A program made the translations under genes and the position numbers. Under the pieces are notes generated by a model. The model was not told where the DNA came from. It did no database searches and worked only from the letters and a program-made list of their open reading frames with translations. A stretch of 64,000 nt of DNA from Carposina sasakii (lineage: Eukaryota > Arthropoda > Insecta > Lepidoptera > Carposinidae), in the NCBI GenBank assembly GCA_014607495.2, contig CP053163.1:9962716-10026715 (forward strand). The letters are read 5' to 3'. Below are positions 19,501-52,900 of the stretch, in pieces; position 1 is the stretch's first letter, and each line of letters begins with the position of its first letter.

Positions 19501-22500
19501 AATAGCTATACAAATACATGCATCTTTCCCGAAGGCGGTAGTTGGGCATACATATCGAGGGTGAAAGGCTATTTGGGATAAGCGCCATTTTTTATATGGC
19601 GCTTATTCCAAATAGCCTTTCACCCCTCGATATACAGGGTGTAACAAAAAGGGTATGTTAAGCGAAAAGCTACGTAAATAGCCCACCGTAGACAACCTAT
19701 CCACAAAATTTGAGACTCGAAATCACATGTTTATTTTTCAAGATTGTATGAAAATTCCTGAGATATTTAAATATTCTCCATACTATCGGGAAATGTGATT
19801 TCGAATCTCAAATTTTGTGGATAGGTTCTCTATAGTGGGCTATTTACGTAGCTTTTCGCTTAACATACCCTTTTTGTTACACCCTGTATAAACTGTGTTC
19901 CCAAAATGGTGTTGTCAGAACTGCAGAATCACACAGGATATCCTTCAGCTATGTAGCAAGGGCGGTGGTTAATGATCTGTGACGAGTTGCGGGTTCACTG
20001 CCTGACGGAAACCCCAAGATTTCCATAGTCCGTTGTCTATCAGTTTGTATAGAATTTGAAACTCTTCCATTACCAAGTAATGGTGTTTGTTACTCTTTCA
20101 TAACCGTGGAACTACTAAACGGGTTTTAATGAAACTTAGATCCGACACTTGAACATGGGGTTTGTGGTTGCGCGAATGAATCTGCAGGCATTAGCTAGCC
20201 AGCTCTAGTAGCATGACCTGCGAAACACGATATGATAAACCGATTTATAGACATTTAGCCTGTCAGAATGCGATAAATATAGCCACCATGTTGAATTTTG
20301 TATAGAGACGATACGATATCGTACGATACGATATCCACGATGCGTGGTCATGCTAGGGGGGCAGCTCTTTTCTGTTTTATGAGTTTATGCATTATTATAA
20401 AACTACCTATCTAAGTTGCATACTTAATTAGTAATCATCAAGATTGAATTACCTGTGGATGGAAGTCTAAATTCATTTTTATTATTTTATATTTTTTGCA
20501 CTCAAAGCCCATGAATGTGGGAAAAGTGGAATCATTTTCTGTTCGTTTTATTTGTAAAGTAGCATAATTTATTCACACATAGGCATATATTCGACAGAGC
20601 CCGCAAACCGCGGCAATACTGCCTACGATACCGCTCTTTACAACGCTGCCACCATGTATGTAGCCCAGCAGAGCAAGACCAGCACCGGAGGGTTAGTATT
20701 TCATGTTATCCTATTTTAATGGTTCACACACAGGTTCAAAACTTTGCTAATATTTAAGACACCGAATTCATGGTAAAAATAATCTGTTCTCTACTCTACA
20801 CAGTCACTATTTCGATTTTGTTCTACAAATTTGTATAATAGCATTCAATTTTGTAAACTGTTTTGGTGAGACAGGGTTATTTCTGTGACACTTCAGATGT
20901 CTTTAAGCAAGGTGTAGTTACATCTCGAGGCATGCTGAGGCACATACTTACTTGACTGCCTCAACCCAAGGCTGCCTCTAACTAATCTGTAGGCATTTCT
21001 GAGAAAAAGGGATCACAAGTCACAGCAATATTGTGTTAAAACTCCGATTGAATGTGCTGCAATGTATTGCATGCAATCAATAGGAATTATACAGTAGGGC
21101 AGAGTCTGTTTCATAGAATTTCCTCTTGATTTCGGAACATTTTTTCTAAAAATTTCTGAGATATTAAAAAATTCTCCATACTATCGGGAAAAATAAACAT
21201 GTGATTTCGGGTCTCAAATTTTGTGGATAGGTTCTCTATAGTGGGCTATTTACATAGTTTTCGCTTAAAATACCCTTTTTGTTACACCCTGTATATATAT
21301 TTATTTGTTATTGTATGTAGTGTCACAGATAATGTAGTACATAGTAACTAGTGCCATCATACAAAGCAACAATTAGGTGAGACGCACTCTAACCTCGCTT
21401 GCTGCCCGCAGCGGCGGCTGGAAGAACTACAACAAGAGCGGTGTGGGAGCCGGCGGGGCCGCACGGCGTGCCAAACCCCCGCCCAAGGCGCAGCAGCTGC
21501 ACTACTGCGACGTGTGCCGCATCTCCTGTGCCGGCCCGCAGGTACTACACTACCCTCATACGAGGCACACCGCATGCAGTTTACTAATACTTCATCTTGT
21601 AATTTAACTAATGCTGTACTCGTACAATGTAGACTTTCTGCTAGAGGAAATGTTTCTTTATCTAATCATTAAGTGTTCCACTGGCACTTGAGTCCGCATG
21701 TCTAGGTTTTTTGTTAACTTCAATCCACCCTGTGCAGAAACTTATCAAGGTCGTCCTGTTATCCGTCCGTTTCCGGCCTGCCTTAATGCCGGAATGCGTT
21801 CCTTGGAATTTAGGTGACACGTTATGTGCGAGCTGGTTTTCGCAACTCGACGATTATGCGCCTATTTTGCGTACATAGGTGTTGGCAACTAAATCTTAAA
21901 TCTACCTAATCTATTTCAAAACAACAAGGATGCACAACCTGCCCATACTAACACCGCCACCCGCCCAACAGACATACAAGGAGCACCTCGAAGGCCAGAA
22001 GCACAAGAAGAAGGAAGCCGCCGTGAAGCTGGCGGCGGCGGGCGCGGCGGCGGCGCGCGGCGGGGCGGGGGGGTCTGCACTGCGGTGTGAGCTGTGTGAC
22101 GTCACGTGCACCGGCGCCGACGCATACGCGGCGCACGTGCGCGGCATCAAGCACCAGAAGGTGGTCAAGCTGCACACCATGCTGGGCAAGCCCATCCCGT
22201 CCGCCGAGCCCGTCAAGCTGGCAGGTACCTACGCCACAACTCGCGCAGTAGGTAGACGAGCGCGGAAATAGTGCCACTACATTAATTTATTAGGTAACTT
22301 AATCCTTTCCGCCGAGCCCGTCAAGCTGGCAGGTACGCTCACCACACAAAACGTTGCTGTGTTAACATCAATGTTATTTCTAAGCAAATATGAAGTCCAT
22401 ATCCATTATTTACTGTTTTGCCCAGTGACTAGTGACTATATATGATATGACTATAGGTAGACACAGGGTCTCATAATAAAATATTTATAAAAAGTGGCAC

Positions 22501-49900: not shown

Positions 49901-52900
49901 GGGTCGAAGCTGCGGATGTAGGTGAGGATGTAGCTGAGGTGCAGCATGTGTAGTGTCACTGACCAGGGTCGAAGCTGCGGATGTAGGTGAGGATGTAGCT
50001 GAGGTGCAGCATGTGTAGTGTCACTGACCAGGGTCGAAGCTGCGGATGTAGGTGAGGATGTAGCTGAGGTGCAGCATGTGTAGTGTCACTGACCAGGGTC
50101 GAAGCTGCGGATGTAGGTGAGGATGTAGCTGAGGTGCAGCATGTGTAGTGTCACTGACCAGGGTCGAAGCTGCGGATGTAGGTGAGGATGTAGCTGAGGT
50201 GCAGCATGTGTAGTGTCACTGACCAGGGTCGAAGCTGCGGATGTAGGTGAGGATGTAGCTGAGGTGCAGCATGTGTAGTGTCACTGACCAGGGTCGAAGC
50301 TGCGGATGTAGGTGAGAATGTAGCTGAGGTGCAGCATGTGTAGTGTCACTGACCAGGGTCGAAGCTGCGGATGTAGGTGAGGATGTAGCTGAGGTGCAGC
50401 ATGTGTAGTGTCACTGACCAGGGTCGAAGCTGCGGATGTAGGTGAGGATGTAGCTGAGGTGCAGCATGTGTAGTGTCACTGACCAGGGTCGAAGCTGCGG
50501 ATGTAGGTGAGGATGTAGCTGAGGTGCAGCATGTGTAGTGTCACTGACCAGGGTCGAAGCTGCGGATGTAGGTGAGGATGTAGCTGAGGTGCAGCATGTG
50601 TAGTGTCACTGACCAGGGTCGAAGCTGCGGATGTAGGTGAGGATGTAGCTGAGGTGCAGCATGTGTAGTGTCACTGACCAGGGTCGAAGCTGCGGATGTA
50701 GGTGAGAATGTAGCTGAGGTGCAGCATGTGTAGTGTCACTGACCAGGGTCGAAGCTGCGGATGTAGGTGAGAAGCTGAGGTGCAGCATGTGTAGTGTCAC
50801 TGACCAGGGTCGAAGCTGCGGATGTAGGTGAGGATGTAGCTGAGGTGCAGCATGTGTAGTGTCACTGACCAGGGTCGAAGCTGCGGATGTAGGTGAGGAT
50901 GTAGCTGAGGTGCAGCATGTGTAGTGTCACTGACCAGGGTCGAAGCTGCGGATGTAGGTGAGGATGTAGCTGAGGTGCAGCATGTGTAGTGTCACTGACC
51001 AGGGTCGAAGCTGCGGATGTAGGTGAGGATGTAGCTGAGGTGCAGCATGTGTAGTGTCACTGACCAGGGTCGAAGCTGCGGATGTAGGTGAGGATGTAGC
51101 TGAGGTGCAGCATGTGTAGTGTCACTGACCAGGGTCGAAGCTGCGGATGTAGGTGAGGATGTAGCTGAGGTGCAGCATGTGTAGTGTCACTGACCAGGGT
51201 CGAAGCTGCGGATGTAGGTGAGGATGTAGCTGAGGTGCAGCATGTGTAGTGTCACTGACCAGGGTCGAAGCTGCGGATGTAGGTGAGGATGTAGCTGAGG
51301 TGCAGCATGTGTAGTGTCACTGACCAGGGTCGAAGCTGCGGATGTAGGTGAGGATGTAGCTGAGGTGCAGCATGTGTAGTGTCACTGACCAGGGTCGAAG
51401 CTGCGGATGTAGGTGAGGATGTAGCTGAGGTGCAGCATGTGTAGTGTCACTGACCAGGGTCGAAGCTGCGGATGTAGGTGAGGAAAGCTGAGGTGCAGGG
51501 TCGAAGCTGCGGATGTAGGTGTCAGGTGCTGATATGCCAGGGTCGAAGCTGCGGATGTAGGTGAGGATGTAGCTGAGGTGCAGCATGTGTAGTGTCACTG
51601 ACCAGGGTCGAAGCTGCGGATGTAGGTGAGGATGTAGCTGAGGTGCAGCATGTGTAGTGTCACTGACCAGGGTCGAAGCTGCGGATGTAGGTGAGGATGT
51701 AGCTGAGGTGCAGCATGTGTAGTGTCACTGACCAGGGTCGAAGCTGCGGATGTAGGTGAGGATGTAGCTGAGGTGCAGCATGTGTAGTGTCACTGACCAG
51801 GGTCGAAGCTGCGGATGTAGGTGAGGATGTAGCTGAGGTGCAGCATGTGTAGTGTCACTGACCAGGGTCGAAGCTGCGGATGTAGGTGAGGATGTAGCTG
51901 AGGTGCAGCATGTGTAGTGTCACTGACCAGGGTCGAAGCTGCGGATGTAGGTGAGGATGTAGCTGAGGTGCAGCATGTGTAGTGTCACTGACCAGGGTCG
52001 AAGCTGCGGATGTAGGTGAGGATGTAGCTGAGGTGCAGCATGTGTAGTGTCACTGACCAGGGTCGAAGCTGCGGATGTAGGTGAGGATGTAGCTGAGGTG
52101 CAGCATGTGTAGTGTCACTGACCAGGGTCGAAGCTGCGGATGTAGGTGAGGATGTAGCTGAGGTGCAGCATGTGTAGTGTCACTGACCAGGGTCGAAGCT
52201 GCGGATGTAGGTGAGGATGTAGCTGAGGTGCAGCAGCGCATGCGCACGCGGCTCGGCGGCGTCGGGCGCGGGCACGAACAGACACAGGTCCATGTCCGAC
52301 TGCTCCAGCCCGAACCCAGACATGGTCGAGCCCACCACGTAGAGGCCGTAGCGCGGGAACAGCGACTGCGGCGAAAGGGTTCATGTGTTATGATAATGTT
52401 ACTGTCGAGGCTAGCACGGCTTGCACTAACAAAGATGAAGCAGCAAAAATTGAGACTGCATTCCTTCGGTTTTACTAGTGCAAGTTACATAATAGCCCTG
52501 TATATTTAAAGTGGTTCAAATGCTATACACATAATATGGTGATTGGAGAGAATTGACTAAACTCACATTCTCAATTTTCTGCTGTAACACATTACTTCAG
52601 CTGTTACATAGCCCTGCAGATTGTTCAAGTAGTTGAAATGCTATTGACCATAACATAACATAAACAAGATTTGACTTAACAATTTTTAACAGCCATTTGT
52701 TTCACATTGGTCATAAATTAAAAAAATAACATAAATTAGTAAAGAAATCAACAGTACATGACATGGCTATATGCCTAAAATCTAAAATGGACTATTAAGA
52801 ATCCTATAGGAAATCCCACAGCCACGTTTAACAAAGCGGAGACATATGTAAAAATACTTCATCTGACTGAGATTTTGACATCCTTACCTTAATAGTGATA

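What the first reader, a model, noticed from the sequence alone, without database searches (positions are those of the whole stretch)
22200..52234. Donor-spanning exonic minisatellites in two neighbouring genes
Seen: five separate tandem duplications each cover the 3' end of a coding exon, its 5' splice site and the first intronic bases. They are Zfr exon 7 (2 donors), exon 11 (16), exon 17 (5), and Gld2 exon 4 (58) and exon 6 (9). Units (108, 48, 51, 65, 98 bp) are unrelated in sequence, so each arose on its own. No array of this kind spans an acceptor. Inference: either the exon-donor junction is a local hotspot for duplication (GC-rich exon end meeting intron, co-transcriptional structure), or such duplications survive because the first donor still defines the exon, or the arrays have a splicing function such as decoy U1 binding. 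Selection alone would tolerate the mirror arrangement at acceptors equally, so the bias needs explaining. I do not know of a described class matching this.
Basis: partly seen in the sequence, partly recalled or inferred. Interest (0 to 1): 0.88.

Follow-up and report, generated by a model that had tools for sequence, protein, structure and literature searches.

The report
Splice-donor arrays growing into introns
In what is likely a moth or butterfly, the ends of five exons in two neighbouring genes, each with its splice-donor signal, are repeated head to tail 2 to 58 times, and the repeats probably persist because splicing would use the first donor and discard the rest as intron.

Summary
Five tandem arrays span exon ends and donors: Zfr exons 7, 11, 17 and Gld2 exons 4, 6, with 2, 16, 5, 58 (plus one damaged copy) and 8 donors; the units are unrelated. 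Two smaller Zfr arrays begin just inside introns. A local-echo test scored 7 of 28 donors and 0 of 28 acceptors at a post-hoc cut-off (Fisher p = 0.010; looser cut-offs and the five spanning arrays alone give p of 0.05 or more). So the bias is suggestive here, not proven.

First-donor splicing gives intact frames without array-length inserts; in four of five arrays every later donor breaks the frame. I infer that donor-spanning duplications are nearly silent and acceptor-spanning ones change the mRNA. Composition, microhomology and DNA folding showed no donor-specific hotspot. Single precedents exist (human IFI6, seen second hand; minisatellites at human exon-intron boundaries); the cluster and its bias look like a new variant. 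A genome-wide count, RNA and raw reads could not be tested.

The parts
22194..22340 (+). Zfr exon 7 end duplicated: 2 donors (22225 and 22333), 108 bp apart; the copy spans about 31 exon bases plus about 14 intron bases
   Evidence: (41/44 identical)
25753..26535 (+). Zfr exon 11 array: 48-bp unit, 16 GTATGT donors, first at 25781; ends in a truncated exon-derived copy
32896..33171 (+). Zfr exon 17 array: 50/51-bp unit, 5 GTACTG donors, first at 32936; ends in a truncated exon-derived copy
48362..52235 (-). Gld2 exon 4 array: 65-bp unit, 58 intact GTCAGT donors and 1 damaged copy, first donor directly below 52188; ends in a truncated exon-derived copy
46148..47003 (-). Gld2 exon 6 array: 98-bp unit, 8 donors (GTAAGT or GTGAGT), first directly below 46922; truncated ninth copy
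19299..19489 (+). Zfr intron 4: intron-only repeats that begin at about intron base 2 (donor at 19298)
   Evidence: (22/22 identical)
28152..28211 (+). Zfr intron 14: intron-only 25-bp repeats that begin at about intron base 8
   Evidence: 17/18 identical
16552..34617 (+). Zfr (zinc finger RNA-binding protein), ATG to stop, 20 coding exons
43919..55132 (-). Gld2 (poly(A) RNA polymerase gld-2), ATG to stop, 9 coding exons

Best explanation
Five exon ends, each with its donor, are tandemly repeated into the following introns, and these arrays likely began as local duplications that persist because the spliceosome would use the first donor and remove every later copy as intron. Shown: array anatomy, placement, open frames with the first donor, broken frames with later donors in four of five arrays, and no acceptor-spanning array in this window. 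Inferred: that the first donor is the one used in this animal; that donor-spanning duplications are therefore nearly neutral while acceptor-spanning ones alter the mRNA and are removed by selection; and that arrays, once started, grow by ordinary repeat instability on the intron side. The Zfr exon 11 array is the exception: all 16 donors keep the frame, so later donors there could add 16-residue modules.
For: With the first donor both genes give open frames and align with relatives without an array-length insert. Gld2, 13 aligned relatives (picked from 120 listed, 620 found): E4/E5 junction without a gap in 11 of 13 (one has 5 extra residues, one lacks the next exon), E6/E7 in 12 of 13 (one has a long insert). 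Zfr, 14 aligned relatives (picked from 120 listed, 2062 found): E17/E18 without a gap in 13 of 14 (one lacks the region); at E7/E8 and E11/E12 the window protein is shorter than, not longer than, the relatives that have the region. Later donors: E7 1 of 1, E17 4 of 4, Gld2 E4 57 of 57 and Gld2 E6 7 of 7 do not give the intact frame; E11 15 of 15 do. Donors versus acceptors: 7 of 28 against 0 of 28 at echo score 30 or more. Published rule: with two consensus donors the first is predominantly used (p = 3.3e-5), with no such preference for tandem acceptors (PMC6783452, section 7 read). IFI6: three mRNA species, two downstream repeat units used as donors (PMC4526556, passage). Potato RdRp: a duplication spanning an acceptor gave a new intron and inserted exonic sequence (PMC4974935, abstract and section 5 read). 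Polarity in the Gld2 E4 array: the 10 copies with the commonest variant lie towards the far intron end (mean copy 45.7 against 26.5, p = 0.0012, two odd-length copies left out), and the first ten copies match the exon.
Against: No RNA was seen, so first-donor use is inferred. The first-come rule was measured in human cells for donors 2-77 nt apart (PMC6783452, methods passage), so the 98- and 108-bp spacings lie outside it; earlier work, recalled and not read here, found the intron-proximal site favoured in some constructs. Acceptors without order preference would still be partly tolerated, so the rule predicts a bias, not zero. With looser echo cut-offs the contrast is 7 against 1 (p = 0.051) or 8 against 3 (p = 0.18), and 5:0 alone is p = 0.051. 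The two intron-only arrays beginning at intron bases 2 and 8 need no donor and hint at a local mutational bias.
Confidence: 0.58

Rival explanations
1. The exon-donor junction, or the first tens of bases of introns, is a mutational hotspot for duplication (breaks or slippage tied to transcription or composition), so arrays arise there more often than at acceptors.
For: All seven junction arrays have a boundary near the donor; two are intron-only and begin at about intron bases 2 and 8; the intron part of the unit is about 16-20 nt in three arrays and 8-10 in a fourth. Array exon ends tend to be GC-rich (0.58-0.75 against a mean of 0.586 elsewhere, p = 0.21). The four multi-copy arrays end inside a truncated exon copy, as a templated insertion would.
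Against: Exon-side GC is alike at donors and acceptors (0.60 and 0.65, p = 0.18), as is intron-side GC (0.43 and 0.39, p = 0.29), and shared 4-6-mers across the junction do not differ significantly (23 donors without arrays against 28 acceptors, p 0.17-0.39) (one search gave nearly the same with one acceptor misplaced). Unit DNA folding z-scores run from -1.3 to 1.1. On the 2-kb scale the Gld2 E4 region is C-rich in the sense strand and the Zfr array regions slightly G-rich, which does not suit one R-loop rule.
Confidence: 0.2
2. The arrays have a splicing function, such as extra U1 binding or regulated choice among donors.
For: Donor sequences stay intact in 58 of 59, 16 of 16, 5 of 5 and 8 of 8 copies; Zfr E11 keeps its frame with any of 16 donors; IFI6 uses several repeat donors (PMC4526556, passage).
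Against: The rest of the units is also well kept, so intact donors can reflect recent copying; unit lengths and sequences share nothing evident; four of five arrays would break the frame if a later donor were used.
Confidence: 0.1
3. Chance: two repeat-rich neighbouring genes happened to have donor-side arrays, and no bias exists genome-wide.
For: One window, five donor-spanning arrays; 5:0 gives sign-test p = 0.0625 and Fisher p = 0.051; looser echo cut-offs weaken the contrast further.
Against: Placement against the gene bodies is unlikely by chance (P = 2.5e-5); 7 of 28 donors against 16 of 805 pseudo-junctions looking downstream and 19 of 805 looking upstream, which overlap and so are not independent.
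Confidence: 0.09
4. Assembly artefact: copy numbers are created or inflated by the assembler.
For: No raw reads could be seen; long arrays are hard to assemble.
Against: Copies in the four multi-copy arrays carry interspersed variants and one Gld2 E4 copy is rearranged, five unrelated sequences are affected, and flanks are sound in frame. Exact copy numbers remain unproven.
Confidence: 0.03

Closest known systems
[quoted passage not shown] 1995; title seen in reference lists, and one sentence in PMC4526556; paper not held)
   Same: Tandem units at an exon end that serve as donors; according to the PMC4526556 passage two downstream units are used, giving three mRNAs
   Different: One gene and one array as far as I saw; here five unrelated arrays in two neighbouring genes, units 48-108 bp, up to 58 donors, and only one array keeps the frame at later donors
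Internal tandem repeats at exon-intron boundaries of human genes in segmental duplications (De Grassi and Ciccarelli 2009, PMC2812944, outline and passages read)
   Same: Minisatellite expansion at exon-intron boundaries that can change splicing; 27 intron modifications reported there
   Different: There in recent paralogs, unit average 30 bp repeated 4 times; a word search of the main text found no 'donor', and the passages I saw make no donor-acceptor comparison. Here conserved genes and donors only
Intron gain by tandem duplication (Rogers AGGT model; potato RdRp case, PMC4974935, abstract and section 5 read)
   Same: Local tandem duplication crossing an exon-intron boundary
   Different: The potato duplication spans an acceptor and adds an intron and exonic sequence; here donors are spanned and no new intron or coding insert is needed
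First come-first served choice of tandem donors (PMC6783452, section 7 and passages read)
   Same: The rule that makes the first of equal donors win
   Different: A reporter experiment in human cells, not a genomic repeat class

Membership tests
Minisatellite with multiple splice donors (IFI6 type) | Tandem array starts in an exon, runs into the intron, and each unit holds a donor | tested here: met
   five arrays, donors intact in nearly all copies
Minisatellite with multiple splice donors (IFI6 type) | More than one repeat donor is used in mRNA | not testable with these tools
   No RNA data; by frame only Zfr E11 could do so without loss of the frame
Exon-intron-boundary internal tandem repeats (De Grassi and Ciccarelli) | Minisatellite array crosses an exon-intron boundary | tested here: met
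Exon-intron-boundary internal tandem repeats (De Grassi and Ciccarelli) | Copy number differs between recent paralogs in segmental duplications | not tested
   The window's own genome could not be searched
Intron gain by tandem duplication (AGGT model) | The duplication creates a new intron whose GT and AG come from the copies | tested here: not met
   Frames and aligned relatives need no added exon; AG directly before the GT in only 2 of 5 arrays (E7, E17)

The most novel reading that the evidence does not exclude
Exon ends are one-way nurseries of minisatellites: because the first donor made is the one used, any duplication across a donor is silent and free to expand, so introns grow from their 5' ends by capturing exon ends, and lepidopteran genomes carry a large donor-only class of such arrays that records the order rule of splice-site choice.
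Probability: 0.38. Interest if true: 0.75.

Novelty: new variant of a known kind. Interest (0 to 1): 0.55.

Why it matters
If the donor-only bias holds genome-wide, these arrays would be natural experiments on how the splicing machinery chooses among identical donors, with up to 58 in one intron, and would show that a splicing rule shapes where repeats can accumulate. They would also be a route by which introns lengthen without changing the protein, and a trap for gene annotation and short-read assembly. The prediction is sharp and cheap to test with existing long-read Lepidoptera genomes and RNA-seq.

Tried and rejected

Arrays as transposons or one spreading repeat: rejected, since each unit is the local exon end and the units are unrelated.

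Special DNA structure: single-strand DNA folding of the five units is unremarkable; RNA was not folded. GC and microhomology asymmetry: none significant.

A decayed last copy beyond each array's 3' edge: alignment scores not above shuffles (p 0.08-0.51, four arrays), so the arrays seem to end abruptly inside an exon-derived piece; by rough reckoning a chance end there is likely enough that I draw no conclusion.

Weak echoes not counted as arrays: acceptors of Zfr intron 7 (13/14, A-rich; score 23 against a null maximum of 22, shuffle p 0.005, the floor), Zfr intron 17 (13/13, p 0.040) and Gld2 intron 5 (13/14, p 0.025); donor of Zfr intron 8 (13/13, p 0.030). They are short single matches. Counting them gives 7 against 1 or 8 against 3 instead of 7 against 0.

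Literature: nine paper searches were answered and one was rejected for its wording. Judging by titles, abstract starts and the passages I opened, none reported a donor-only minisatellite class or such arrays in Lepidoptera; one search returned no paper at all. Most subscription papers are not in the library.

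Full report
What is there. The window holds two host genes that face each other tail to tail: Zfr on the + strand (16552-34617, 20 coding exons) and Gld2 on the - strand (55132-43919, 9 coding exons). I built both models from splice junctions; each reads as one open frame. Best relatives by sequence are Lepidoptera: the top Gld2 hit, Anticarsia gemmatalis, is 75% identical, and listed Zfr hits reach 80% over the region searched, so the window is very likely from a moth or butterfly. 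Solved relatives agree on identity: GLD2 structures and the ILF3 DZF domain.

The arrays. Tandem Repeats Finder gave the four long arrays. Counting donor by donor: Zfr E11 has 16 GTATGT donors, all 48 bp apart; Zfr E17 five GTACTG donors, 50 or 51 bp apart; Gld2 E4 58 intact GTCAGT donors and one damaged copy, mostly 65 bp apart; Gld2 E6 eight donors (GTAAGT or GTGAGT) 98 bp apart and a truncated ninth copy. Zfr E7 is a simple duplication with two donors 108 bp apart (41 of 44 bases identical). Each unit is the local exon end plus the first intron bases; the units are not related to one another (10 comparisons, lowest p 0.04). Two further arrays, in Zfr introns 4 and 14, begin at about intron bases 2 and 8 and contain no full donor.

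Is it more than chance? I searched each exon-intron junction for an echo of itself in the adjoining intron. Of 27 introns in the two genes, 7 donors and no acceptor scored 30 or more; the one coding intron that I tested in the third gene gave none on either side. So 7 of 28 donors and 0 of 28 acceptors (Fisher p = 0.010). This cut-off was set after seeing the scores, and the contrast softens with others: counting every junction at the floor of the shuffle p (0.005) gives 7 against 1 (p = 0.051), every junction below 0.05 gives 8 against 3 (p = 0.18), and only the arrays that span a donor give 5 against 0 (p = 0.051); the extra acceptor cases are single matches of 13-14 bases. Outside arrays, 16 of 805 overlapping pseudo-junctions reached 30 looking downstream and 19 of 805 looking upstream. 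A possible 5' untranslated intron of Gld2 was not tested. In a placement simulation on genes with arrays collapsed, seven TRF arrays would span 0.36 donors; four do (P = 0.00024); with the E7 duplication five of eight (P = 2.5e-5). The placement at donors is thus well supported; the donor-over-acceptor bias is suggestive from this window alone.

Which donor matters. If the first donor is used, the proteins match relatives with no array-length insert. For Gld2 I aligned 13 relatives picked from the 120 listed: the E4/E5 junction is gap-free in 11 (Chrysodeixis has five extra residues, Eumeta lacks the next exon) and E6/E7 in 12 (Parnassius apollo has a long insert). For Zfr I aligned 14 of the 120 listed: E17/E18 is gap-free in 13 (one lacks the region), and at E7/E8 and E11/E12 the window protein is a little shorter than its relatives; at E7/E8 one relative has a long insert and two lack sequence. 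If a later donor were used, the intact frame would be lost at E7 (1 of 1), E17 (4 of 4), Gld2 E4 (57 of 57) and Gld2 E6 (7 of 7, two of them by a frame shift without a stop inside the coding sequence); only at Zfr E11 do all 15 later donors keep the frame, adding 16 residues per unit. So four arrays are harmless only if the first donor is used; that it is used is inferred, since no RNA was at hand.

Why donors and not acceptors. A large reporter study in human cells found otherwise: when both of two tandem donors were given the consensus sequence the first was predominantly used, whereas tandem acceptors showed no order preference (PMC6783452, section 7; donors there were 2-77 nt apart). Under that rule a duplication across a donor leaves the mRNA unchanged; a duplication across an acceptor puts extra sequence into much of the mRNA. 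For short units that lack a branch point, scanning for the first AG after the branch point (described in PMC1431707, passages) would make this worse, as the earliest copy would win. A published acceptor-spanning duplication, in potato, indeed changed the gene structure (PMC4974935). I therefore read the pattern as a selection filter set by the order rule of splicing, acting on ordinary local duplications that then expand. In the Gld2 E4 array the variant copies lie towards the far, intron end (p = 0.0012), and the ten copies next to the exon match it, in keeping with growth or turnover near the exon.

The rival hotspot view. I looked for a donor-specific mutational cause and found none that is significant: exon GC (0.60 at donors, 0.65 at acceptors), intron GC (0.43 and 0.39) and shared short words across the junction are alike at the two ends (p 0.17-0.39), and the single-strand DNA folding of the units is ordinary. 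Array exon ends lean GC-rich (0.58-0.75 against 0.586, p = 0.21). The two intron-only arrays that begin right at the donor, and the short intron part of four units (about 8-20 nt), keep a hotspot possible. Truncated exon copies at the 3' ends of the four multi-copy arrays would suit a templated insertion after a break just inside the intron, but a chance end there is not unlikely.

Relation to what is known. The nearest relative is the human IFI6 minisatellite, named in print as providing multiple splice donor sites (title seen in reference lists); one paper that cites it says two downstream repeat units act as donors, giving three mRNAs (PMC4526556). Minisatellites at exon-intron boundaries were also surveyed in human segmental duplications (PMC2812944, outline and passages). 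So the kind is known from single cases; five unrelated donor-spanning arrays in two adjacent genes, up to 58 donors long, with a donor-only pattern, I did not find described in the listings.

Verdict. Real; likely a by-product of how donors are chosen rather than a new device. What would raise it is a genome-wide donor excess, which could not be counted here.

Noticed in passing
2232-4071 (+) and 1673-2227 (-): ORF pieces that look, by recall, like a Harbinger-type (HARBI1) transposase and a MADF-like DNA-binding partner (translations; not searched).
   Followed up: no
61182-62183 (+): A 333-aa stop-to-stop ORF that looks by recall like a transposase of the mariner/Tc1 class, lying between inverted stretches near 60.9 and 62.4 kb (by eye).
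   Followed up: no
26560-26830 (+) and 47440-47650 (-): A similar short element with internal inverted repeats lies in Zfr intron 11, right behind the exon 11 array, and in Gld2 intron 5; possibly a MITE (by eye).
   Followed up: no
56780-59100 (+): A third host gene, first coding exon 56780-58291, possibly UBAP1-like by recall; its tested intron 58292-58962 has no junction repeat. The 3' end is approximate.
   Followed up: partly
25753-26535: The 48-bp Zfr exon 11 array is open in all six frames across its copies, so it could be translated if later donors were used.
   Followed up: partly
26520-26542: The tail of the exon 11 array continues into exon sequence that lies upstream of the repeated unit in exon 11, so the first duplication was probably longer than 48 bp (by eye).
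   Followed up: partly
Gld2 exon 4/5 junction in P0006: Chrysodeixis includens Gld2 has five extra residues exactly at this junction; whether a donor or acceptor shift is unknown.
   Followed up: no
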